From: a virus
Reading direction: 5' to 3' (one strand)
IMG/VR virus record: IMGVR_UViG_3300042445_002558
Coordinates: 1-22,817 of that record
DNA: 22,817 nt
Shown: positions 228 through 20,586 of the stretch, piece after piece
Layout of the letters: each line of letters begins with the position of its first letter
Position numbering within the stretch: position 1 is the first letter of the stretch
Position numbers and translations under genes: made by a program
The notes under the pieces: generated by a model
What the model was told of the DNA's origin: nothing
What the model saw: the letters and a program-made list of their open reading frames with translations, nothing else
Database searches by the model: none

Positions 228-476
228 ATGAGTAATCAGATAGACTTTAATTCTAACTGAATAATTATTTTTTATTATCCAGCATTCGCAGGCAGAAAAT
301 TTCTAATTAACAGTTTAGGATTAAGTAATTCTGTGGTTTTCCAAGATGAATGGTTAGCAAGAGATCAAATTGAAGTTTTATATCAGCAGTTAGGATTAAC
401 AGATTTTAATGCAGAGCATATTAATTGGTATTACCATACTTGGATTAATAAATTAAATGAACTTAAATTAAAATGA
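228..476 (+). pseudogene. Degraded paralogue of the P-loop protein at 1120-1809 (in-frame stop plus large internal deletion)
   Basis: Starting at ATG 228, the frame reads ten codons and meets TGA at 258-260, then stays open to TGA 474-476. The part after the stop contains YYPAFAGRKFLINSLGLSNS, closely matching YPSGAGGKFLINCLGLSDT of the gene at 1120-1809. Its last 25 or so residues (ending INWYYHTWINKLNELKLK) match that gene's C-terminus (LNYYHAWQNKLIELKSKQ). The middle, roughly 140 codons, is missing, but the join preserves frame. The remnant overlaps the next start by ATGA, exactly as the intact pair at 473/1120 does. TGA is used as a normal stop elsewhere in the window, so a reassigned codon is unlikely. 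A readthrough miniprotein cannot be excluded. Confidence 0.75.
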
Positions 477-1123
477 AAAAATTATTAATTATTACTGGTC
501 CACAAGGTTCAGGAAATCATATATTTTCACGAATTTTTAGTACATCTGATATTGTAGGTGGCTGGAAAGGACTATTAGATGAATATTGGATTCCAAGTGA
601 TTTAGAACCATTTGCTGAATATTGGGTTTATCCAGAGAGGTTAACAGAACAACAATTTAATGGATATGACTATTGGGTAGCTAATGTTAGTGTTCCGTTT
701 GTATATGATGGTATTAGACAAACTCCTAAGATTTTGGAGTTTGCCAAAGCAGCCAAATCATTTGGCATTAACGTACAAATTGCAATTATAGTTCGAGATA
801 AAACTATCAATGAAGAACAACAATTACGTGTACGAAAAGAAGTAACATTACCTATTGCACAAAATTATTACTATAATGTGCTATTAAATAGTGAATTTCC
901 CGTTCATTTCCTTGATAATGAGGCATTTTTCCTCCATAATCACCACTATTTAAAGTGGGTTAGTAAACTACTTAACTTTCCAGTAAATTGGGAAAGTTTA
1001 GATGTACTTAAATTTATTACCGATGATCCTAATAAAAAGTATGTACAACATGTTGATACATATTGGTTGGATAATAGAGTATGGGAAGGAATACAATCAA
1101 AAAAAGATCGAGGAATTAAATGA
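473..1123 (+). CDS. P-loop NTPase / sulfotransferase-like protein, first gene of the module
   Basis: The N-terminus reads MKKLLIITGPQGSGNHIF: a hydrophobic strand followed by a glycine-rich GPQGSGNH loop at residues 9-16. This resembles a Walker A or PAPS-binding loop but lacks the usual GK(S/T) lysine, so a sulfotransferase-like or other P-loop fold is more likely than a kinase. Residues 95-105 (VQIAIIVRDK) form another buried strand, and the C-terminus carries the DDPNKKY motif shared with the truncated upstream paralogue. Its length of 216 residues suits a single domain. It starts on an ATGA overlap with the preceding remnant and ends on an ATGA overlap with the next gene, so the two proteins are probably translationally coupled and may work together. 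Substrate unknown. Confidence 0.6.
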   Translation: MKKLLIITGPQGSGNHIFSRIFSTSDIVGGWKGLLDEYWIPSDLEPFAEYWVYPERLTEQQFNGYDYWVANVSVPFVYDGIRQTPKILEFAKAAKSFGINVQIAIIVRDKTINEEQQLRVRKEVTLPIAQNYYYNVLLNSEFPVHFLDNEAFFLHNHHYLKWVSKLLNFPVNWESLDVLKFITDDPNKKYVQHVDTYWLDNRVWEGIQSKKDRGIK

Positions 1124-8668: not shown

Positions 8669-8845
8669 ATGAAATCATCAGAATTTATTAAACAATTAAA
8701 CGAATATGGCAGTTGTGGCGGCACAGCAACTGGCTCTATAGCTACTGCACCTGGTGTTAGCCAAGGTCCAGAAGTTGGATCATTATTTGGCGGTAGTTAT
8801 GAACAACCTAAGACTCCAGCTAAGAAAAAATCTAGGAAGAAATAA
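8669..8845 (+). CDS. Small Gly/Ala/Ser-rich protein with capsid-targeting-like leader
   Basis: A 58-residue ORF begins MKSSEFIKQLNEYGSCGG and ends with a basic tail KTPAKKKSRKK. The first 12 residues resemble the T4 internal-protein leader (MKTYQEFIAE), with LNE as a candidate cleavage site for a gp21-type protease. The middle (GGTATGSIATAPG, SLFGGSYEQ) is low complexity and the lysine-rich end could bind DNA, fitting a small packaged head protein. It lies after a late-promoter-like box, has a CGGAA word upstream, and shares the base A of TAATG with the next gene. Function is inferred only from these features. Confidence 0.65.
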   Translation: MKSSEFIKQLNEYGSCGGTATGSIATAPGVSQGPEVGSLFGGSYEQPKTPAKKKSRKK

Positions 8846-9956: not shown

Positions 9957-10193
9957 ATGAAATCAACGGATTTTTTAGATACCAATATACAAGTTAATGA
10001 AGATATTAATCAAAAAGATAGTATTCGAATTGATGTACCTTTATTAATTCGCTTATTAGAATATGCACGTGAAGATGCTAAAACCGATTTAGATTTACAT
10101 AATGTTGCAGAAAAATTAATTAATCTCAGTCAAACTGGACATATATTAACGATGAATGACTATACTAAAATTTGTGATACAGAAGGACGATAA
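9957..10193 (+). CDS. Small conserved-type phage protein, 78 residues
   Basis: It begins MKSTDFLDTNIQVNED, a leader-like start, and continues with an all-helical domain: IRIDVPLLIRLLEYAREDAKTDLDLHNVAEKLI, then a short segment TGHILTMNDYTKIC. The regular amphipathic helices suggest a small folded helical domain; no enzyme motif is present. AAAGAG lies just upstream of the ATG as ribosome binding site. The stop is directly followed by the ATG of the glycine-rich adhesin. Function unknown; a head or structural accessory role is only inferred from context. Confidence 0.65.
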   Translation: MKSTDFLDTNIQVNEDINQKDSIRIDVPLLIRLLEYAREDAKTDLDLHNVAEKLINLSQTGHILTMNDYTKICDTEGR

Positions 10194-11356: not shown

Positions 11357-12646
11357 ATGAGAGCACAAGATTTCCTCACTGATGCCAGACGGAACCCCAG
11401 ACTGAATCCTAAGTATAGTGAATTAACACAATTAGAACATATTGAACTTGAGTACAGCACTGAAAATATGTACGTACGATTCGTTGACTTACCAAAGTTA
11501 GGTATTAATCCAAATAGCACATATGGTACACCATTTGGTATTTGTGCATATCCACTTGAATATGTTATTGAAAAAGAACTTGATGTTCCGTTTGCTGGCG
11601 AAATGCCTTATATGGTAGTATTTGAAGATACAGGTGCAAATCTATTACATCTTCATAAACCAAGCACAGAATGGACTCCAGACGATCTTGAGTTAGGTAG
11701 ACGTATGGTACCTATTCTTAAATCAGTATTAAAAACTGATAAACTAGATATGAAGACTGAAAAGCATGATCCACAAGATGAAGATGCAACAGAACGTGAA
11801 TGGAGTCCTGTTTGGTCTTGGATGTATAAGAATATTTTACAATTTAGTGATTATGCTAATAGAGGTAAAACAGCCACAAAAATATTAAAACAATTAGGAT
11901 ATGATGGAGTTCGAGATCCAGGTTACGGTATTATATTCACAGATGAACCTGAACAAACTATATTTTTTAATACATCAAACCTAAAATTAATAGCAAGTAT
12001 TGACCGACATATAAGCGATACTTTTATTGCATATGGTAAACCAAACGACTGGACTAACTATCATCCAAAAGAATTAACTAAAGCAGATACTGCCACAACA
12101 AGAAGCCGTTATAGCAATATAGAAAAGATACAAAAAAACTATGAACGTGAGATGGCATATTATTTTAGAAAACATACAGGCTGGTCATTTGAACAGTTAA
12201 TTCAAAAATATCCTTACTTAATACAATATTATCATTCTGCTACACCACAACAAACACAACATTTTCAAGCTATGGTATTAGCTGATCCAAAAAGATGGGC
12301 AGATAAATATGAATTAATGCCAGTTGATTTTCAAATAAAATTAATACAATCAAATTCTGATAATTTACAATATATTCCCAAAGTTGCTAAAGAAACTATG
12401 ATTGCCGCAGTAAATAAATATCCATTTGCAATTGGTGAAACAAACCGTTATAATAAGCATTGGGAACAAGATACTGATGTACAAATTGCTGCATTAAATA
12501 GTTTTATAGCTAAAAATCGTACAAATCCACATCTACATGAGATATTGATGGCATTTGTTAAGACACAGATTAAATACGGAACACAAGAATTTAGAAATTA
12601 CTTCTTTGATTTAAAAGATCTAAGAAACGAAATCCAAAAAAACTGA
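11357..12646 (+). CDS. ADP-ribosyltransferase-like protein with helical repeat C-terminus and leader
   Basis: It begins MRAQDFLTDARR, a leader-like start. Residues about 30-220 hold features of ADP-ribosyltransferase domains found in phage polyvalent and Alt-like proteins: VRFVDLPKLG, STYGTPFGICAYPLEYV, a strand PYMVVFEDTGA, and a characteristic end LGYDGVRDPGYGIIFTDEPEQTIFFN with the GYDGV...(V/I)FF pattern. The family would move ADP-ribose from NAD+ to a target. Catalytic residues cannot be fixed without alignment. Residues 220-429 are helical and resemble DUF4116-type repeats (VDFQIKLIQSNSDNLQYIPKV, AVNKYPFAIGE). T4 injects the ADP-ribosyltransferase Alt from the head, which makes the leader notable. 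Confidence in the enzyme class is moderate. Confidence 0.55.
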   Translation: MRAQDFLTDARRNPRLNPKYSELTQLEHIELEYSTENMYVRFVDLPKLGINPNSTYGTPFGICAYPLEYVIEKELDVPFAGEMPYMVVFEDTGANLLHLHKPSTEWTPDDLELGRRMVPILKSVLKTDKLDMKTEKHDPQDEDATEREWSPVWSWMYKNILQFSDYANRGKTATKILKQLGYDGVRDPGYGIIFTDEPEQTIFFNTSNLKLIASIDRHISDTFIAYGKPNDWTNYHPKELTKADTATTRSRYSNIEKIQKNYEREMAYYFRKHTGWSFEQLIQKYPYLIQYYHSATPQQTQHFQAMVLADPKRWADKYELMPVDFQIKLIQSNSDNLQYIPKVAKETMIAAVNKYPFAIGETNRYNKHWEQDTDVQIAALNSFIAKNRTNPHLHEILMAFVKTQIKYGTQEFRNYFFDLKDLRNEIQKN

Positions 12647-12654
12647 GGTAAGTA

Positions 12655-13371
12655 ATGGGCGGTAATGTTTTTAAAGATGCACATGGACCAAGTACAGGAC
12701 GTATCAATAAAGCGGATGTTATCACCACAGTTGAATGGTTAGAAAATCTAACCGGACTTAATCTTATTGATAATATGTTAGGTACAACTGGCAAAAAAGA
12801 ATCCAGTGGCGACTTAGATCTTGCAGTTGATGCAGAAAAAATTGATAAACAAACACTAATTGATGTACTATTAAAACGTGGCATTGATACGCAAAGTATT
12901 AAAAAGTCCGGCGATAGTGTACATCTAAAAACTCCAATAAACGGCAATCCTAAAAATGGTTATGTACAAACAGATTTTATGTTTGGAAGACCAGAATGGC
13001 AACATTTTAGTATGACTGGAAGTCCAAACGGAAGTCCGTATAAAGGTATGCATAGACATTTGTTACTTGCTAGTCTTGCTAAATCACAAGGACTAAAATG
13101 GAGTTATAAGAACGGATTAGTTAATAGAGAAACTAATGAAGTTGTTAGTCAAAATCCAAATGAAATTGCACATATATTGTTTAATGGTAATGCGTCAGAC
13201 TTAAATAGTGTAGAATCTATAATTAAAAAAATTAAATCACTTCCAAATTATGAAACATTAGTTGCACAATTTAAAGGTGATCTTGCACGTGATCCGCAAG
13301 GCCCACAATTAGACAATATGTATGCTGAATCTACACAATGGTTCAGAGCAATGGAGAATATACTAAAATGA
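12655..13371 (+). CDS. Pol-beta-superfamily nucleotidyltransferase-like protein
   Basis: LGTTGKKESSGDLDLAVD at residues 42-59 contains the G(S/T)...DxD signature of the Pol-beta nucleotidyltransferase fold (D53 and D55 binding metal), and VQTDFMF at 104-110 supplies the expected third aspartate, D107. The rest (about 115-238) is mostly helical, with HRHLLLASLAKSQGLKWSYKNG near 130. Such enzymes transfer a nucleoside monophosphate to RNA, protein or small molecules; the substrate is unknown here. A GAGGT ribosome binding site at 12645-12649 supports ATG 12655. It has no leader of the kind seen in its neighbours (start MGGNVFKDAHG). It is coupled by ATGA to the next gene. It may act with the ADP-ribosyltransferase-like protein immediately upstream. 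Confidence 0.75.
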   Translation: MGGNVFKDAHGPSTGRINKADVITTVEWLENLTGLNLIDNMLGTTGKKESSGDLDLAVDAEKIDKQTLIDVLLKRGIDTQSIKKSGDSVHLKTPINGNPKNGYVQTDFMFGRPEWQHFSMTGSPNGSPYKGMHRHLLLASLAKSQGLKWSYKNGLVNRETNEVVSQNPNEIAHILFNGNASDLNSVESIIKKIKSLPNYETLVAQFKGDLARDPQGPQLDNMYAESTQWFRAMENILK

Positions 13372-13841
13372 AATTAACTAATTTTATTAGTCAGCAGTTA
13401 CTTATAATGGAAAGTGAATTGGATGACATACTTGCACAACCTACTGCAACTGGACCGAGCAAACTTAAACAAGCGGCAGTTGCTGGTGCTAAAGCAGTAG
13501 GTAAAGTAGCTACCGCAGCTGGGAAAGGAGCAGTTGCTGGTGCTGATACAAGTTTAAATATTGTTAAAAATACAGCTAAAGCCGCTACTAATGTATTAGG
13601 AACATCAGGTGGTATAAAATCACCTGGGCAAAGTGGACATTTTAAAAATGTTGACATCTTTGGAACTAATAACTCTGCAGCAACTAGCAACGACGAAGTA
13701 GAACCAACTTCTTCATCAACTGTATCTAAACAAATGATAGATACTGCTCGTAATGTTACTAAAGGTAAGGTTGCAACAACGCCAACTGATGTGCCCGAAG
13801 TTAATGATTTATTAAAAAAACTGCAAGTATTAAAAAAATAA
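13368..13841 (+). CDS. Ala/Gly/Lys-rich small protein with capsid-targeting-like leader
   Basis: I start at ATG 13368, which overlaps the previous stop (ATGA), rather than the in-frame ATG 30 bases upstream, because the encoded MKLTNFISQQLLIMESELDD is a leader-like start with IME as a candidate cleavage site. The 157-residue product is rich in alanine, lysine, glycine and threonine (AAVAGAKAVGKVATAAGKGAVAGAD), with a Ser/Thr-rich middle and a helical end (EVNDLLKKLQVLKK). It has the look of a small basic internal head protein, comparable in character only to T4 internal proteins. No enzyme motif. A 6-bp hairpin with loop GTATAAAAT sits at 13606-13626. Confidence 0.6.
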   Translation: MKLTNFISQQLLIMESELDDILAQPTATGPSKLKQAAVAGAKAVGKVATAAGKGAVAGADTSLNIVKNTAKAATNVLGTSGGIKSPGQSGHFKNVDIFGTNNSAATSNDEVEPTSSSTVSKQMIDTARNVTKGKVATTPTDVPEVNDLLKKLQVLKK

Positions 13842-13954
13842 TGACAACTGAGCAGTTTGATCAGTTAGAACGAATAAAGGAACAATTTCTTCAGCAAAAA
13901 ACGGTCACTGAAGAATTAGAATTGCCAATGGAACCAGAAAATGAGATCATCTGA
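13841..13954 (+). CDS. Possible 37-residue small protein
   Basis: A short ORF, MTTEQFDQLERIKEQF...ELPMEPENEII, starts on a TAATG overlap with the gene before and runs 14 bases into the gene after. It fills what would otherwise be a 99-base gap, and the acidic, glutamine-rich sequence predicts one amphipathic helix. The one-base overlap typical of this genome argues for it. The very short length and lack of known relatives argue against. No ribosome binding site can be separated from the upstream coding sequence. Confidence 0.45.
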   Translation: MTTEQFDQLERIKEQFLQQKTVTEELELPMEPENEII

Positions 13955-14360
13955 ATTTATAGTAGAATATTTACTTTTTACTGCTAAGACTAAAAACATT
14001 AGGATATTAGTTAGTAGTCATGTAAGAGATCGAGCATTAGAACGTGATATTCCATGGCCTGTCATTAGTGATATGATTTTTAGCATAACTAAAATCACAC
14101 CAAAATTAGAACAAATGCTTAACTTTGATAAATTTTATTTTCGAGATCCAACAAATAATATTGAAATTGGTGCCAGATATCATGCTAACCCAGATGATCC
14201 AAAAGGTATGACTCGTACTTTATTTTTAAATACTGTAATAAATCCAACAGATGTTGATTACACACGCAATTGGATTAAACGAATTATCGTGCCATCTATT
14301 CAGACAAAACAAATAATTGACCCAAACTCCCTTAGGACCGCGACCAAAACAGTTGCGTAG
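13941..14360 (+). CDS. Small unknown protein with strong capsid-targeting-like leader; possible RNase-toxin-like fold
   Basis: MRSSEFIVEYLLF is one of the clearest leader-like starts in the window (IVE as a candidate cleavage site). The body, from residue 20, reads IRILVSSHVRDRALERDIPWPVISDMI, then ITPKLEQML, FYFRDP and a strand LFLNTVINP. The H-x-RDR-x-x-ER-x-I pattern recalls DUF4258/RelE-like small RNA-cutting toxins, where an N-terminal H...R.R segment precedes a helix, but this is a weak resemblance. The last dozen residues (SLRTATKTVA) are encoded by an abruptly G+C-richer sequence that belongs to a hairpin array (14328-14423), so the natural C-terminus may have been replaced. Function unknown. 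Confidence 0.55.
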   Translation: MRSSEFIVEYLLFTAKTKNIRILVSSHVRDRALERDIPWPVISDMIFSITKITPKLEQMLNFDKFYFRDPTNNIEIGARYHANPDDPKGMTRTLFLNTVINPTDVDYTRNWIKRIIVPSIQTKQIIDPNSLRTATKTVA

Positions 14361-14471: not shown

Positions 14472-14609
14472 ATGCGTTTCAAAGAATTTAAGTTAAATCC
14501 ACTAACTGAAGCGATACTTGATGAAGTATCAATGAGTCCTACTTCTTTGCAAAGATGGGCTGATAGCCCAGATGCCGAAGGCATGTTAATGGGTATTGAG
14601 TTTGAGATG
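14472..14609 (+). repeat. 5' direct repeat, amidoligase copy 1
   Basis: The first 138 bases (ATG to the codon after GIEFE) are nearly identical to those at 16174-16311 and 18913-19050, ending abruptly where the proteins diverge. Each contains GATACTT-GATG-AAGTATC, a 7-bp hairpin (14513-14530 here). Confidence 0.85.
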
Positions 14610-16184
14610 TGTGTACCAGGTGATGGATTTGACAGAGAATCCGAACCTGATTATAGCCATGATCCGTTGGTTTATTCAGTTGAAGAAATATTAGATTTTT
14701 ATGATCAAGGCGAACATTCAGATCTGACATACTATCGCGGTCAAGTTGAACAATCACTTATGGAATTATACCAAAACTGGTATTTTGATGCAATTGGTGA
14801 ATATATTGATAATAATCCCGGAACATTATCAATGTATCTTTTTGAAGAAATTAGTAATCTCATTGATTTTGAGGACTATGTAGACAAAGCCAGAGAAGAA
14901 CTTGGCGATGATGCCCAAGACGAAGATGTACAAAAGTTAGCACATAAATTACACCGAGACGACATCGATACAATCATCAGTGATGAAATGGATATATATG
15001 AAGAAGCATTAGATCTTGTTCGTGCAAGAATAGAAGAAGAAATGCAAGATTCAAGTTTGCTTAGTGAAAAACGATGGCTACGTGATGTAGGTGTATCTCG
15101 TATGACTGATGCAATGGATTTAAATGATTATTTACAATGGCCATTGTTTGAAGATGATGGCGTAATAGAAGGAATAGGTAATGACTTTGCTACAGCAATC
15201 GGCGAACCTGTACATACAAATTCCGGTTATCACGGTAGTGGTAGAGGTAGAGGTCTGTGGATAATTGAACCAGATAGTTCAATTGATTGTGATCATCCTG
15301 ATGATAAGGGATTAGAATTTATTAGTCCACCACAATCAATTAGTGAAACTCTTCGTCAGATGTCAGAATTACACGATTGGGCAAACAGCAAACAATGTTA
15401 TACCAATGAATCTACTGGTTTACATATGAACATTAGTATTCCAGATTATTCAATTGAGAAATTAGATTTTATTAAATTAGCATTGTTTATGGGTGACAAA
15501 TATATACTTGATCAATTTGATAGAACAACTAATTCATATTGTAGAAGTGCAATTGATATTATTAAGAGAGGCACAACATCAGAGAATGTTAACCAAGTAT
15601 TAATTAAGATGCGTCAACATTTAAATGTGGCAGCTAGCAAATTAATACATCAAGGTTGGACAGCAAAATATACAAGTATTAATACTCAAGATGGATATGT
15701 TGAATTCCGTGGACCAGGTGGTGATTATTTAAATAAATCAGTTACTGAATTAACTAACACAGCATTACGTTTAGCAATGGCATTAAATATCGCATGTGAT
15801 GAGAATGCTCATAAAGAAGAATATGCTAAAAAATTATATAAATTAATTGCCGTAGCTGGACCTAAAGATAATACCATTGATCTATTTGTTGACTTCACAT
15901 CAGGCAAGTTAAGTCAAGCTGATTTAAAAGCATATCTTAGACAACGTCAAGCAGGTCGTGCAAATCAAAAAGAACTAAAAAATCCTAATGCTAGCAAAGT
16001 TGCTCCAGCTACACATCAAGGTATGTCACAGCCAGGTACATCATGGCATGTAACAAATAATAGTACTGGACAAAGTTCAACTATTTCGGCTAATAATTTA
16101 GAAGATGCTCAATTTGTTGTTAGGACAATGACTGGAATGCCAGTCGACCAATATACTATTACTAGGGCAAACGATGCGTTTTAA
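14472..16184 (+). CDS. Amidoligase-like protein, copy 1
   Basis: The 570 residues start with MRFKEFKLNPLTEAILDEV, a leader-like segment (LTE and LDE as candidate cleavage sites). The rest shows the signature of the COOH-NH2 amidoligase superfamily (glutamine-synthetase-like fold, forms amide bonds using ATP): GIEFEM near 41, WIIEPDSSI near 263, GLEFISPP near 280, STGLHMNIS near 314 and YVEFRGPGG near 409. The long segment 48-260 is acidic, helical and different in each copy. A C-terminal extension ends with one small SWHVTN...VDQYTITRA module. The start sits after AGGAC, copied at the other paralogues. The enzyme could ligate amino acids or peptides to a host or phage target; the substrate is unknown. 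Its last 11 bases overlap copy 2. Confidence 0.75.
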   Translation: MRFKEFKLNPLTEAILDEVSMSPTSLQRWADSPDAEGMLMGIEFEMCVPGDGFDRESEPDYSHDPLVYSVEEILDFYDQGEHSDLTYYRGQVEQSLMELYQNWYFDAIGEYIDNNPGTLSMYLFEEISNLIDFEDYVDKAREELGDDAQDEDVQKLAHKLHRDDIDTIISDEMDIYEEALDLVRARIEEEMQDSSLLSEKRWLRDVGVSRMTDAMDLNDYLQWPLFEDDGVIEGIGNDFATAIGEPVHTNSGYHGSGRGRGLWIIEPDSSIDCDHPDDKGLEFISPPQSISETLRQMSELHDWANSKQCYTNESTGLHMNISIPDYSIEKLDFIKLALFMGDKYILDQFDRTTNSYCRSAIDIIKRGTTSENVNQVLIKMRQHLNVAASKLIHQGWTAKYTSINTQDGYVEFRGPGGDYLNKSVTELTNTALRLAMALNIACDENAHKEEYAKKLYKLIAVAGPKDNTIDLFVDFTSGKLSQADLKAYLRQRQAGRANQKELKNPNASKVAPATHQGMSQPGTSWHVTNNSTGQSSTISANNLEDAQFVVRTMTGMPVDQYTITRANDAF

Positions 16185-16311
16185 AGAATTTAAACTAAAT
16201 CCACTAACTGAAGCGATACTTGATGAAGTATCAATGAGTCCTACCTCTTTGCAAAGATGGGTAGAAGGCCCAGATGCAGAAGGCATGTTAATGGGTATTG
16301 AATTTGAGATG
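16174..16311 (+). repeat. 5' direct repeat, amidoligase copy 2
   Basis: Second copy of the 138-base near-identical unit. Here it overlaps the end of copy 1 by 11 bases; the word GATGCGTTTTAA encodes both the C-terminal DAF-stop and the new MRF. The hairpin is at 16215-16232. Confidence 0.85.
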
Positions 16312-18270
16312 CTTGTACCTATTTCCGACGTTTATGAAGAATTAACTAGTCAACCCAAGGGATCTACTGAAAAAATACCTAATTATGCTTACGATAGGAC
16401 ACCACGTTCGATTAGTGATGCAGTTGATTTCTTTAAAAGAGATCATTATGAAAACAATCCAGGATTTGATGAAAGACAAGCTAAAGAATTAGAAGATAAT
16501 TTAGAACAACGTTACGAAAAATGGAAAGATGGCAAATTAGGTAGGATTGTCGAGCACGATGATTATTATGCTAAAATGTTAAAAGATTATATGATTGAAT
16601 TTCTTAGCGATACTTATGATGAGGAAGATTCTGATAAATCATTTAATGAGGCAGAAGCTGAATTAGGTGAAGAGGCTGAATATGATGATGTAATGAAACG
16701 AGCCACAGAAATACGTAATGAATTTGCTAAGAAAGTTATGGCGGATAGTAACAATCCAGAATTTAGTGAGTTATATCAGACCATATATTCAGACGCTTTT
16801 GACCATATGAAAAGTGTGGCATATCGACCACAGTCTATTAAAAATATGGTAGCAGAAGACCGTTGGTTTGAAGATATTGACATATCAATGCGTAATATTA
16901 GCCAAGATTTTAATATAAGATGGCCCTATTGGGAGTCTCCTAATAATTTTAGTAGTATAGACGATATTGATATTATTAAATTTATAGGCAACGATTTCAG
17001 TGAGAGATTAGGTGGCATTGAATTTGAAGCAAGCGAAGGTTACCACAGTATTAGAAATCGTAACTCAGGTAAATGGATAATTGAAACAGATAGTTCAATA
17101 ACACGCACAGATGCATTTGGAGGAAGGGGTGGTTCTCCAAGACGTAATCAGGAACTAGGATTAGAATTTATTAGCCCTGCTCAACCTATTGCTAAAACAT
17201 TAGAACAATTAAAACAATTAATAGCTTGGGCAAAAGAATGGGGTTGCCAAACTAATACATCAACTGGGTTACATATTAATATTAGCGTGCCAAATTTTTC
17301 AATTGATACATTAGATTATATTAAATTAGCACTGTTTATGGGTGATAGATATATACTTGATCAATTCGGCCGTCTGAGTAATAGTTATTGCAACAGTGCC
17401 GCTGATATTATTGATTATCAAAGAGATACAACAAGACCGGTAGTGGTTGTTAATATATTAGATAAAATGCGTGATCAGTTAAATTTAAAAGCCAGCAAAT
17501 TAATTCATGATGGAATGACTGAGAAATATACAAGTATTAATACTAAAGAAAAATATGTTGAATTCCGTGGACCGGGTGGAGATTATTTAAATAAACCAGT
17601 TGTTCAACTAGTTGATACTTCGTTAAGGTTAGCAATGGCATTGAATATCGCATGTGATGAACAGGCCCATAAAGAAGAATATGCTAAAAAGTTATATAAA
17701 TTAGTTGCTCCGCTGAACAGTAACAATGATATGGTAGGAATATTTTCACAATTTTCAGCTGGTACTATAGACAGAGACCAATTAATAAATAGAGCTAAAA
17801 ATCTTATATCTGACAAACCAATGTCTAAATCACAATTTGAATTGCCTTGGTGGTCAATTGTGCCAGCTCGTGACTCTTCAGCATCAAATGTGGTAGAAAT
17901 ACAAGCACGTAATAAACAAGAAGCATTTAAACTAGCATCGGCAGAAGTTGATAAACGTGAGTGGTGGATAAAAGATGCCTGGAAAACTGCACTCGAAGAT
18001 GAAAGCAAGTATGGCAAAGGTAGTGGATTTGTAGTTACCCAAATGAAGAGTCCGCCAATTGGCAAAAGAAGAGTGCCAAGAAGACCTAAACCGGCTGCAT
18101 CGGTACAACGTCCAGCATCACAAAGAGTATATAAAGTCTGGGTTATAAGAGAGCCAGAACGCAACTGGTTGGTATCAGCAAGTGATGTTGCATTTGCAAT
18201 AAATAGAGTTGCCGCTGGTAATGACATTCCGGCCCACCTACTAGATGGCGAATCAGAAGAAGAGATATAA
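16174..18270 (+). CDS. Amidoligase-like protein, copy 2
   Basis: At 698 residues this is the longest of three paralogues. It keeps the same 45-residue start, then a unique acidic helical segment (about 48-298, with DEEDSDKSFNEAEAELGEEAE), then WIIETDSSI near 301, GLEFISPAQ, STGLHINIS and YVEFRGPGGDYL. The C-terminus holds two modules: LPWWSIVP...FVVTQM and, at the end, YKVWVIREPERNW...IPAHLL, separated by a basic proline-rich linker (GKRRVPRRPKP). The ATG lies inside the final codons of copy 1 in another frame, so translation is coupled. Middle and C-terminal differences suggest different targets for a common ligase core. The enzyme assignment rests on motif order, not on a search. Confidence 0.75.
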   Translation: MRFKEFKLNPLTEAILDEVSMSPTSLQRWVEGPDAEGMLMGIEFEMLVPISDVYEELTSQPKGSTEKIPNYAYDRTPRSISDAVDFFKRDHYENNPGFDERQAKELEDNLEQRYEKWKDGKLGRIVEHDDYYAKMLKDYMIEFLSDTYDEEDSDKSFNEAEAELGEEAEYDDVMKRATEIRNEFAKKVMADSNNPEFSELYQTIYSDAFDHMKSVAYRPQSIKNMVAEDRWFEDIDISMRNISQDFNIRWPYWESPNNFSSIDDIDIIKFIGNDFSERLGGIEFEASEGYHSIRNRNSGKWIIETDSSITRTDAFGGRGGSPRRNQELGLEFISPAQPIAKTLEQLKQLIAWAKEWGCQTNTSTGLHINISVPNFSIDTLDYIKLALFMGDRYILDQFGRLSNSYCNSAADIIDYQRDTTRPVVVVNILDKMRDQLNLKASKLIHDGMTEKYTSINTKEKYVEFRGPGGDYLNKPVVQLVDTSLRLAMALNIACDEQAHKEEYAKKLYKLVAPLNSNNDMVGIFSQFSAGTIDRDQLINRAKNLISDKPMSKSQFELPWWSIVPARDSSASNVVEIQARNKQEAFKLASAEVDKREWWIKDAWKTALEDESKYGKGSGFVVTQMKSPPIGKRRVPRRPKPAASVQRPASQRVYKVWVIREPERNWLVSASDVAFAINRVAAGNDIPAHLLDGESEEEI
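17260..17306 (+). repeat. 47-base identical run shared by amidoligase copies 2 and 3
   Basis: The 47 bases at 17260-17306 recur without change at 19606-19652, covering the conserved STGLHINISVPNFSI motif; copy 1 differs in this stretch at several bases. Identity including silent positions suggests recent duplication or gene conversion between copies 2 and 3. Confidence 0.8.
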
Positions 18271-18477
18271 ATGAAAGCATATGAATTTATAGTCGAATAC
18301 CAAGCTCCAGACATTGAAGTAGGTGATGAAATAAGAATTGGTAAGTTCAAGAATAGAAAGGCCGAAGTAAAAGGATTTACTAAAGACAACCACAATCAGC
18401 CTGTACTTAAAACTACCAAAGGTGATCAACCGTTATTTAAACCGCGTATTGTTAAACTTATGAAAGATAACAAATGA
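18271..18477 (+). CDS. Small SH3-like phage protein with capsid-targeting-like leader
   Basis: The 68-residue product starts MKAYEFIVEYQAPD, the best match in the window to the T4 internal-protein leader (MKTYQEFIAE), with IVE as a candidate cleavage site. The rest is a compact beta domain: IEVGDEIRIGKFKNRKAEVKGFTKD, then PVLKTTKGDQPLFKPRIVKL. The VGDEIRIGKF...A.V.GF pattern resembles SH3/KOW-like barrels. It follows copy 2 with no gap and overlaps the next gene by ATGA. It is probably a packaged small protein, by inference; its molecular role is unknown. Confidence 0.65.
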   Translation: MKAYEFIVEYQAPDIEVGDEIRIGKFKNRKAEVKGFTKDNHNQPVLKTTKGDQPLFKPRIVKLMKDNK

Positions 18478-18908
18478 ATATTTTTGAATTATTTGATCAA
18501 CCAGTACAATATGATTGGGAAAACTTAGATGATCGTGGCGGAACAGCAACATTTCAGATTGGTGACAATGAGTACCAAGTTATGGTTTATGCTGGCGGAA
18601 CAGATGAAGAATATTATCCTGATGAAGATGAACTACCTGAAGTAGATATTGAATTCTGTCGTATGGTTAACAATAAATGTGTTCAAGATATAACAGGTAG
18701 TGGCAATGCTGGAACAGTTTTTGCTACTATAGTAGCAATTATGCAAGAATATATTAGTAGTCACCCAGTTGGTGCACTAATGTTCTCAGCTAAAGAAGAA
18801 AATCGTCAACAATTATATATGAGAATGATAAAACGATTATTACCTACATGGAAAATTACTCGTAGTGGAGGAAGTTTTTACGCCACACCCCCTTATAACA
18901 GGACCTAA
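18474..18908 (+). CDS. Conserved-type phage protein, acetyltransferase-like end possible
   Basis: It starts MNIFELFDQPVQYD, similar to the Alt-type leader (ELFD). An acidic beta part follows (TATFQIGDNEYQVMVYAGG, acidic DEEYYPDEDELPEVDIEF). The C-terminal half reads GSGNAGTVFATIVAIMQEYISSHPVGALMFSAKEENRQQLYMRMIKRLLPTWKI, where a glycine-rich turn, a helix and a strand followed by R-x-x-LY-x-R-M resemble the CoA-binding half of GNAT acetyltransferases. The resemblance is only in pattern. The whole gene is coupled by ATGA to 18271. Its stop lies four bases before the third amidoligase, whose ribosome binding site AGGAC falls within its last codons. Confidence 0.55.
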   Translation: MNIFELFDQPVQYDWENLDDRGGTATFQIGDNEYQVMVYAGGTDEEYYPDEDELPEVDIEFCRMVNNKCVQDITGSGNAGTVFATIVAIMQEYISSHPVGALMFSAKEENRQQLYMRMIKRLLPTWKITRSGGSFYATPPYNRT

Positions 18909-18912
18909 CACT

Positions 18913-19050
18913 ATGCGTTTTAAAGAATTTAAACTAAATCTACTAACAGAAGCGATACTTGATGAAGTATCGATGAGTCCTACCTCTTTGCAACGTTGGG
19001 CTGATAGCCCAGATGCAGAAGGCATGTTAATGGGTATTGAATTTGAGATG
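18913..19050 (+). repeat. 5' direct repeat, amidoligase copy 3
   Basis: Third copy of the 138-base unit; the hairpin at 18954-18971 is extended by one pair here (CGATACTT/AAGTATCG) through a silent change. Confidence 0.85.
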
Positions 19051-20586
19051 GTCATACCTAACTTATCATTGATGGATTATGACAGCACTGATTACGACTA
19101 TGATAGAGATATTGATAATATCCAAGATATCGTAGGGTGGTTCCAGGACGAATATCGTATTCCGGTTGGTGGGGTTCCACTTAGTGAATGGTTGAGGCGT
19201 GAGTATAATGAATGGAAGGAAGAGTTTAGTGATGATGATTCGGATCTCAATGAGAAAGATTGGTTAGAGGATTCTGACGTGTTTTCGTTACGTGATGCTG
19301 CAGAAATATGGGATCTTGAATGGCCCAGCAAACCTAAAGATTCCAAAGAAGGCATTACAATTGATGATGTTAGTAGATCTTTTCAGAAAGCATTAGGATT
19401 AACTAAAGTGCATACTAGTAGTAGTTATCATGGCGCAACCAGAGAAGACAGTGTATGGTCGATTGAAACAGATAGTTCAATTGAGGGTCTGCATGGCGAT
19501 AACGGCCTAGAATTTATTAGTCCTGCTCAACCAATTGCCAAAACATTAGAACAGATGAAACAATTAGTCAAATGGGCTAAAAGTGAAGAATGTTATACAA
19601 ATGACTCAACTGGGTTACATATTAATATTAGCGTGCCAAATTTTTCAATTGAGAAATTGGATTTTATTAAATTGGCATTGTTTATGGGTGACAAATATAT
19701 ACTTGATCAGTTTAAACGTACAAGTAATAACTATTGCAGAAGTGCAACCGACATTATTAAAAGAAAAGTTACTCCTGAGAATGCAGAAGCGGTACTGGCA
19801 AAGATGCGTGAGCACTTGAATATTGCTGCCAGCAAATTAATTCATAGCGGCACAACCGACAAATATACAAGTATTAATACCCAAGATGGATATGTTGAAT
19901 TTCGTGGACCAGGTGGTAATTATTTAGATAAACCAGTTGAACAATTGGTTAACACTTCGTTAAGATTAGCAATAGCATTACAAATTGCATGTGATGAAAA
20001 TGCTCATAAAGAAGAATATTCTAAAAAGTTATATAAATTAATTGCTCCAGCAGATAGTAATAATGATACTGTTAAGTTATTTTCAATGTATGCGGCTGGA
20101 GAATTACATAGAAATCTTTTAATGTATTCCGTACGACAAATTCAAAAAATAAGAAAAGGTATTGTACCTGGGCAGATTAACATACCGTTATTTGATATAT
20201 TTAAACCGGAATATGCACAATACTTAGATATGAAAGGAGATTGGCAAATAAGTTACCCAAATGGTGATATAGGGCACAGATTTGATGTAACACCTAGAAT
20301 GCTAGCACACGCGGCAGGATCATTGCCAGAAGGAACTTCAATTCAAATAACCCTTAAAGGACAAGATCAACCACAAGTGCCAAATCAAAGTGCGACTATA
20401 ACTACACCTGCGCCAAGGGCAGAGGCTGTGTCTGGTGATACTGCAGATCCGCTATGGAAAATTTACAGAGACGGATATCCACAGAACTATACATTACGGC
20501 ACTCACCTACAGCACAAGCCGCATTAGCATGGGCATCTGCCAGAACTGATATGCCCAAGAGTAATTTTCAAGTCCGCCTAGCCTAG
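18913..20586 (+). CDS. Amidoligase-like protein, copy 3
   Basis: I start at ATG 18913 because the preceding AGGACC and the MRFKEFKLN leader match the other copies; the ORF is open 48 bases further upstream but that overlaps another gene. The 557-residue product has the shortest variable segment (about 46-180), then WSIETDSSI near 182, GLEFISPAQ, STGLHINIS and YVEFRGPGGNYL, the amidoligase signature. The C-terminus again has two small modules, DWQISYPNGDIGHRFDVT...TSIQITL and PLWKIYRDGYPQNYTL...SNFQVRLA, joined by a Pro/Thr/Ala linker. These resemble the end modules of copies 1 and 2. Its stop is followed by the metallopeptidase gene after 13 bases. Substrate unknown. Confidence 0.75.
   Translation: MRFKEFKLNLLTEAILDEVSMSPTSLQRWADSPDAEGMLMGIEFEMVIPNLSLMDYDSTDYDYDRDIDNIQDIVGWFQDEYRIPVGGVPLSEWLRREYNEWKEEFSDDDSDLNEKDWLEDSDVFSLRDAAEIWDLEWPSKPKDSKEGITIDDVSRSFQKALGLTKVHTSSSYHGATREDSVWSIETDSSIEGLHGDNGLEFISPAQPIAKTLEQMKQLVKWAKSEECYTNDSTGLHINISVPNFSIEKLDFIKLALFMGDKYILDQFKRTSNNYCRSATDIIKRKVTPENAEAVLAKMREHLNIAASKLIHSGTTDKYTSINTQDGYVEFRGPGGNYLDKPVEQLVNTSLRLAIALQIACDENAHKEEYSKKLYKLIAPADSNNDTVKLFSMYAAGELHRNLLMYSVRQIQKIRKGIVPGQINIPLFDIFKPEYAQYLDMKGDWQISYPNGDIGHRFDVTPRMLAHAAGSLPEGTSIQITLKGQDQPQVPNQSATITTPAPRAEAVSGDTADPLWKIYRDGYPQNYTLRHSPTAQAALAWASARTDMPKSNFQVRLA

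What the first reader, a model, noticed from the sequence alone, without database searches (positions are those of the whole stretch)
14472..20586. Three tandem amidoligase-like enzymes with a constant start, variable middle and modular ends
Three paralogues share a near-identical 138-base start and a common ligase core, but the segment between GIEFEM and W(I/S)IE(P/T)DSS is about 220, 258 and 140 residues and unrelated by eye. Amidoligases of this superfamily join amino or peptide groups through amide bonds. Constant core plus swapped middle looks like diversification of target specificity, as in toxin or tagging systems. Combined with the leader, this could be an injected protein-tagging system not described to my knowledge.
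Basis: partly seen in the sequence, partly recalled or inferred. Interest (0 to 1): 0.85.

Follow-up and report, generated by a model that had tools for sequence, protein, structure and literature searches.

The report
Phage-head-packaged amidoligases in tandem triplicate
A T4-like virus of bacteria carries three side-by-side copies of an amide-bond-forming enzyme, each with the kind of short address tag that T4 uses to load proteins into its head, so they are probably injected with the viral DNA to modify something in the host cell; neither the injection nor the target has been shown.

Summary
The three tandem genes are real: A 14472-16184, B 16174-18270, C 18913-20586. They are amidoligases: Pfam Amidoligase_2 hits for B and C, A homologous, invariant catalytic-type residues, and glutamine synthetases as the best structural neighbours. 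The constant start has two parts. Residues 1-18 match T4 capsid-targeting propeptides (T4 IPI MKTFKEF...ITE|A; here MRFKEF...LDE|V). Residues 19-46 hold the first catalytic strand, GIEFEM. The prohead-protease-type [LI]xE site is kept in 44/44 relatives, even where the amidoligase sits inside a polyprotein, and both AlphaFold models are disordered almost exactly up to it. The same tag marks 139 of 859 neighbouring genes (internal-Met control 0.5%). The middle is not unrelated sequence: it is a homologous helical insertion, 135 residues in C and 189-254 in most relatives, that has diverged far more than the flanks in a mosaic way. Best reading: head-packaged, protease-processed, injected amidoligases within an effector island, duplicated in this lineage (a syntenic phage has one copy). 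Packaging, activity and substrate are untested. Target diversification is plausible and unproven; protein tagging is one option among several.

The parts
14472..16184 (+). Amidoligase A (570 aa)
   Evidence: Intact ORF; core 66% and 74% identical to B and C; all invariant family residues present; AlphaFold model, pLDDT 82.9
14472..14525 (+). A: 18-residue capsid-targeting-type leader ending in LDE (predicted cleavage after E18)
   Evidence: [LI]xE in 44/44 relatives; residues 1-18 pLDDT <50; resembles T4 IPI propeptide
14526..14609 (+). A: rest of constant start, first catalytic strand GIEFEM
   Evidence: E43, E45 invariant in 44 relatives
14610..15257 (+). A: variable helical insertion (216 aa)
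15258..15845 (+). A: conserved catalytic core, WIIEPDSS to KLYKL
15846..16184 (+). A: variable tail with C-terminal beta-beta-alpha-beta module
   Evidence: AlphaFold strands 523-540, helix 543-554, strand 561-565
16174..18270 (+). Amidoligase B (698 aa); start overlaps the end of A by 11 nt
   Evidence: Pfam Amidoligase_2 E 1e-11, above curated cut-off
16174..16311 (+). B: constant start (leader 16174-16227, then GIEFEM)
16312..17073 (+). B: variable helical insertion (254 aa)
17074..17703 (+). B: catalytic core, WIIETDSS to KLYKL
17704..18270 (+). B: variable tail
18913..20586 (+). Amidoligase C (557 aa)
   Evidence: Pfam Amidoligase_2 E 2.8e-11; Foldseek top PDB hits are glutamine synthetases
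18913..19050 (+). C: constant start (leader 18913-18966, then GIEFEM)
   Evidence: residues 1-17 pLDDT <50
19051..19455 (+). C: variable helical insertion, shortened (135 aa)
19456..20040 (+). C: catalytic core, WSIETDSS to KLYKL
20041..20586 (+). C: variable tail with two beta-beta-alpha-beta modules
   Evidence: AlphaFold secondary structure 444-481 and 514-556
8669..8845 (+). Small protein with leader MKSSEFIKQLNE
   Evidence: leader scan
9957..10193 (+). Small protein with leader MKSTDFLDTNIQVNE
11357..12646 (+). Protein with leader start MRAQDFL; no LxE at the usual place, so a weaker case
12655..13371 (+). Conserved protein of the same island (63% identical in G001); nucleotidyltransferase-like by eye only
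   Evidence: no Pfam hit
13368..13841 (+). Protein with leader MKLTNFISQQLLIME
13941..14360 (+). Protein with leader MRSSEFIVE
18271..18477 (+). Small protein between B and C with leader MKAYEFIVE
18474..18908 (+). DUF6934-type protein (MNIFELF start); the same domain is fused behind amidoligase in relative L063
20600..21019 (+). Metallopeptidase-like protein (HELVH); metallopeptidase domains are fused in front of amidoligase in relatives

Best explanation
The three genes encode amidoligases (glutamine-synthetase-like, ATP-dependent carboxylate-amine ligases) that are cargo of the phage head. Proposed steps: (1) each is made with an 18-residue T4-type capsid-targeting propeptide; (2) this draws it into the prohead core; (3) the gp21/S77-type prohead protease cuts after LDE18, leaving the folded enzyme (helix from residue 23, catalytic strand GIEFE at 39-48) in the head; (4) it is ejected with the DNA; (5) in the host cell it forms amide bonds on an unknown carboxylate or amine partner, as one member of a cocktail of similarly tagged effectors. 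The large helical insertion between the first catalytic strand and the rest of the site is the likeliest partner-recognition part. Tandem duplication plus strong divergence or recombination of that insertion gave three enzymes, probably with different partners. Shown computationally: family membership, leader type, protease-site conservation, tag enrichment, and the mosaic pattern. Inferred: packaging, cleavage, ejection, activity, and role of the insertion.
For: Enzyme: Amidoligase_2 over cut-off for B and C; residues such as E43, E45, E185, D187, E200, H236, N238 and R331 of C invariant in 44 relatives; best PDB neighbours of both models are glutamine synthetases; viral-library neighbours are named amidoligase enzyme. 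Delivery: [LI]xE at position 16-18, then xxM, in 44/44 relatives, including polyproteins where the site is internal (L002a, L042, L038, L078, L040, L066, L070, L074); models disordered over 1-17/1-18; T4 IPI/IPII/IPIII propeptides read from the T4 record match in layout, and their targeting and processing are described in PMC9026906. 139/859 other genes at these loci carry the tag against 10/2184 internal methionines (odds ratio 42), in at least 38 sequence families; in one 329-kb contig 10 of 18 tagged genes sit in one 21-gene piece (P 6e-10). An S77 prohead protease occurs in all seven contigs of at least 188 kb, beside gp67/gp22-like genes in the one examined. Diversification.
Against: No virion proteomics or biochemistry was found for these proteins. 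The window is a 22.8-kb fragment without its own protease gene. GS similarity is weak in TM-score (about 0.2) and a profile comparison with E. coli GlnA found nothing. The window has no T4-type late promoter TATAAATA (0 found, about 5.5 expected by chance). The leader regex was drawn from sequences already seen. Tagged genes are not all independent. The substrate is unknown.
Confidence: 0.7

Rival explanations
1. Head-packaged but acting inside the virion: the enzymes modify phage head proteins or the internal peptides and polyamines before ejection, so the target is viral and the paralogues serve assembly.
For: The same leader evidence; head-core proteins occur in the same phages; the Atu_ph07 relative lies two genes from the portal gene.
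Against: Neighbouring tagged cargo includes enzymes more typical of host manipulation or stress (GNAT, NUDIX, superoxide dismutase, cell-wall hydrolases). Copy number varies 1-3 between syntenic phages. A fast-diverging insertion suits a changing partner better than a conserved capsid.
Confidence: 0.17
2. The enzymes are made and act in the infected cell without packaging; the shared N-terminus is simply part of the amidoligase fold.
For: Residues 19-46 do belong to the fold (ordered; GIEFEM catalytic strand).
Against: Residues 1-18 are predicted disordered. The same leader occurs on at least 38 other sequence families. A prophage amidoligase outside this clade lacks it. Leader length varies while LxE is fixed.
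Confidence: 0.1
3. The first reader's specific version (a sub-case of the best explanation): a protein-tagging system in which swapped middles encode different targets.
For: Extreme mosaic divergence of the middle in this phage; recurrence of tandem copies in other phages.
Against: Amidoligases can equally act on small molecules or cell-wall peptides. The insertion is homologous across the family. The L002 pair shows no mosaic. There are no substrate data.
Confidence: 0.25
4. The variable middle is neutral (independent of the delivery question): a loosely constrained helical insertion that drifts fast, the apparent mosaic coming from alignment error at 24-33% identity plus gene conversion of the flanks.
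For: The middle is the least conserved part of the folded domain family-wide (mean identity 30%, core 57%), and misalignment inflates synonymous divergence.
Against: Among 227 pairs of similar core divergence the window pairs are extreme. The insertion is confidently predicted as ordered helices in A (pLDDT about 90).
Confidence: 0.3

Closest known systems
Amidoligase_2 (PF12224) family of putative amidoligases
   Same: Catalytic motifs, and a GS-like fold as nearest structural neighbour
   Different: A helical insertion of 135-254 residues where the Porphyromonas prophage member has about 40 residues; a T4-type leader in front; variable C-terminal modules
T4 internal proteins IPI, IPII, IPIII and Alt (capsid-targeting propeptide, gp21 processing, ejection with DNA)
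   Same: Short M-basic-x-x-acidic-aromatic/aliphatic leader and an [LI]xE-type site at 9 or 18 (T4: 10 or 19); S77 protease in the related phages
   Different: Cargo is an amidoligase; tens of different tagged proteins form an island; some are fused into polyproteins with the site kept internally
Polyvalent proteins of phages and plasmids (PMC5512222)
   Same: Relatives fuse nucleotidyltransferase, metallopeptidase, amidoligase and GNAT/ParB/DUF6934 domains in one chain
   Different: That paper's text does not mention amidoligases; in this window the modules are separate genes, most with their own leaders
Agrobacterium phage Atu_ph07 AUZ94978 (jumbo T4-superfamily phage)
   Same: Homologous amidoligase with short leader MRWQDISSKKLTE
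   Different: Single copy, next to portal and prohead genes, about 25% identical overall

Membership tests
Amidoligase_2 (PF12224) | Match to the curated profile over its cut-off | tested here: met
   B 45.7 bits, C 44.2 bits, cut-off 22. A gives no hit alone but its core is 66-74% identical to B and C
Amidoligase_2 (PF12224) | Conserved catalytic-type residues (GxExE, ExDxS, E.xSP, TGxHxN, EFRxxGG) | tested here: met
   Invariant or nearly so in 44 relatives, all present in A, B and C; the same motifs align to the Porphyromonas prophage amidoligase
Amidoligase_2 (PF12224) | Glutamine-synthetase-like fold | tested here: met
   Top PDB matches of both models are glutamine synthetases, E 4.7e-4 (prob 0.99) for C and 6.5e-3 (prob 0.98) for A, but TM-scores about 0.2, so only moderately
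Amidoligase_2 (PF12224) | ATP-dependent amide-bond formation | not testable with these tools
   Needs a biochemical assay
T4-type capsid-targeted internal proteins | Short N-terminal targeting motif | tested here: met
   MRFKEF against T4 IPI MKTFKEF; tag 35-fold more frequent than after internal methionines at related loci
T4-type capsid-targeted internal proteins | Prohead protease site of (L/I)xE type ending the propeptide | tested here: met
   44/44 relatives; disorder ends there in both models. Cleavage itself not tested
T4-type capsid-targeted internal proteins | Phage encodes a gp21/S77 prohead protease | tested here: inconclusive
   Found in 7 of 15 related contigs, all seven of at least 188 kb; the window itself is a 22.8-kb fragment
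T4-type capsid-targeted internal proteins | Present and processed in the mature virion | tested here: inconclusive
   The Atu_ph07 homologue counts as gp196, inside the CDS 170-215 virion-protein cluster of PMC6102473, but the protein-level table could not be read
Polyvalent proteins | Several effector domains in one polypeptide | tested here: not met
   Window proteins have one recognised domain each; relatives L063, L064 and L040 do meet it

The most novel reading that the evidence does not exclude
T4-like, mostly large phages use one short head-address tag to load a whole cocktail of enzymes. In it a duplicated amidoligase with a recombining recognition insertion conjugates different host molecules at the moment of infection, as an injected amide-tagging system. 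In other phages the same cargo is made as polyproteins that the prohead protease would cut apart inside the head.
Probability: 0.27. Interest if true: 0.87.

Novelty: new variant of a known kind. Interest (0 to 1): 0.62.

Why it matters
Both halves are known separately: amidoligases exist in phages, and T4 loads a few internal proteins by a short tag. Amidoligases as tagged head cargo, among tens of tagged genes, were not found in the literature searched here. If right, the tag gives a sequence rule for reading out the injected proteins of many uncultured T4-like phages, and it makes the unknown function of phage amidoligases testable as an early-infection host modification.

Tried and rejected
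Sequence search of the PDB with the family profile: no homologue. Profile comparison with E. coli GlnA: nothing, so no residue-by-residue mapping to glutamine synthetase is claimed. T4 late promoter TATAAATA as a timing clue: none in the window; in contig G001 it is concentrated before gene starts (17 of 34 against 8% by chance), but no tagged gene has one directly upstream, so timing stays open. Cellular relatives as a control: the scan of 84,980 genomes gave one fragment on a 5-kb contig binned with a Burkholderiaceae MAG, so the subfamily looks phage-borne. Tail module: a profile built from the tails finds little beyond its own seeds, so its homology across the family is not claimed. Unrelated swapped middles: rejected in favour of a homologous, hyper-diverged insertion. 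The 2009 amidoligase survey (PMC3268129) was not held, so its statements on phage amidoligases were not used. No NCBIfam match above cut-off.
Full report
What is there. The window is a 22,817-base IMG/VR virus record with a DNA polymerase B gene at its end, a Clp-type ATPase, a DnaJ-like protein and a virion protein family. Three tandem ORFs (A, B, C) lie at 14472-16184, 16174-18270 and 18913-20586. B and C match Pfam Amidoligase_2 well over its cut-off. A does not match alone, but its core is 66% and 74% identical to those of B and C. The residues expected of a working enzyme are present in all three and invariant or nearly so in 44 relatives.

Structure. AlphaFold models of C (pLDDT 74.6) and A (82.9) both return glutamine synthetases as the best PDB matches (E 4.7e-4, prob 0.99 and E 6.5e-3, prob 0.98). 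TM-scores are low (about 0.2), so the fold claim is moderate. Viral structure neighbours are proteins named amidoligase enzyme.

The constant start. It is two things. Residues 19-46 are the beginning of the fold, with the strand that carries GIEFEM. Residues 1-18 are a leader. In 44 of 44 relatives, whose leaders vary in length and sequence, position 16-18 reads [LI]xE and is followed by an invariant Met at position 21. The models are disordered (pLDDT below 50) over residues 1-17 (C) and 1-18 (A). T4 internal proteins, read here from the T4 record, start MKTYQEFIAEA (IPII, IPIII) and MKTFKEFTSTTTPVSTITEA (IPI). PMC9026906 describes these 10-19-residue propeptides as capsid-targeting sequences removed by the gp21 protease, with the proteins ejected into the host. 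The amidoligase leader has the IPI layout. In relatives where the amidoligase lies inside a longer chain, behind nucleotidyltransferase and metallopeptidase domains, the [LI]xE site is kept although it is no longer N-terminal. That fits a protease site at a domain boundary and does not fit a translation-start or DNA-level signal.

The neighbourhood. Of 859 non-redundant genes other than amidoligases at the related loci, 139 carry the tag (M[KR]xx[EDQN][FILV] followed by [LIVF]xE), against 10 of 2184 internal methionines (odds ratio 42, P 5e-67; three of the 139 proved to be unmasked amidoligases). They fall into at least 38 sequence families, with E at position 9 in 29 of 38 representatives. 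These counts are not fully independent, and the pattern was written after seeing the first leaders. In the 329-kb contig G001, 18 of 390 genes match and 10 of them are in one 21-gene piece (P 6e-10). That piece is syntenic with the window and has one amidoligase where the window has three. All seven related contigs of at least 188 kb encode an S77 prohead protease, beside gp67/gp22-like genes in the one examined. Its gp23-like protein has LVE at residue 42, near where T4 gp23 is cut (the T4 comparison is from memory). Tagged neighbours include GNAT, NUDIX, superoxide dismutase, cell-wall hydrolase, sigma-70 region 4 and DUF6934 domains.

The variable middle. It is not unrelated sequence. It aligns over the family and is predicted as ordered helices. 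Lengths are 189-254 in most relatives; C (135) and Atu_ph07 (158) are short. A prophage amidoligase from Porphyromonas has about 40 residues there and no leader, so the insertion is probably a feature of this clade; this is a single control. In the window trio the middle has diverged far more than the flanks. At identical residues, codons agree at the random level in the middle but well above it in start and core. Among 227 pairs with similar core identity, these three pairs have the most similar starts and nearly the least similar middles. Either middles were exchanged, or flanks were homogenised by conversion around old middles. The L002 tandem pair has no such mosaic, so tandem duplication recurs but the mosaic may be particular to this lineage.

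Mechanism. Most likely the enzymes are packaged in the head, trimmed after E18, ejected with the DNA, and form amide bonds on an unknown host partner. My rough probabilities are 0.9 that they are amidoligases by fold and active site, 0.85 that they are head cargo, 0.65-0.7 that they act in the host, and 0.25-0.3 that they tag host proteins with specificity set by the insertion.

External check. In Attai et al. 2018 (PMC6102473) the listed head proteins include gp198 and gp204, which by accession spacing fit the portal (AUZ94980) and the prohead core protein (AUZ94986). On that count the Atu_ph07 amidoligase (AUZ94978) is gp196, inside their CDS 170-215 virion-protein cluster. The gp numbering is inferred, and whether gp196 itself was detected is in a supplementary table not readable here.

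Novelty. Amidoligases in phages and capsid-targeting in T4 are each known. Polyvalent injected proteins are known, but that paper's text does not mention amidoligases. The searches here found no report of tagged, injected amidoligases; subscription papers are largely outside the library. I file it as a new variant of a known kind.

Noticed in passing
L099 2138-18043 (contig G001, about 202-218 kb): A run of about ten closely spaced genes starting MRAREFIIE, MRAIEFIIE, MRFKEILNE and similar: an apparent head-cargo island syntenic with the window.
   Followed up: yes
Tagged genes at related loci (alignment A5): Tagged cargo includes an iron/manganese superoxide dismutase, a NUDIX hydrolase, GNATs, GH19/cell-wall hydrolases and a sigma-70 region 4 protein: an unexpected set of predicted injected enzymes.
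   Followed up: partly
L063 4618-10872, L064 3919-9060, L040 3436-7962: Long polyproteins (1500-2085 aa ORFs) that fuse nucleotidyltransferase, metallopeptidase, amidoligase and ParB/GNAT/DUF6934 domains in various combinations; where read, the internal LxE site before the amidoligase is kept.
   Followed up: partly
L032, L035, L079, L080, L081: A second, more distant amidoligase type (leader like MKLFEFDPPLDE, then APMNP...) sits near the first in several contigs, so tandem amidoligases recur.
   Followed up: no
window, whole: The T4-type late promoter TATAAATA is absent from both strands (0 against about 5.5 expected), while in G001 half of its copies lie just upstream of genes.
   Followed up: partly
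window 473-1123 and 1120-1809: Two adjacent proteins without informative family matches; the first is 69% identical to a G001 protein, which itself has a neighbouring paralogue.
   Followed up: no
L109: The only relative found among cellular genomes is a fragment on a 5-kb contig binned as a Burkholderiaceae MAG; possibly a host hint or a binned phage contig.
   Followed up: no
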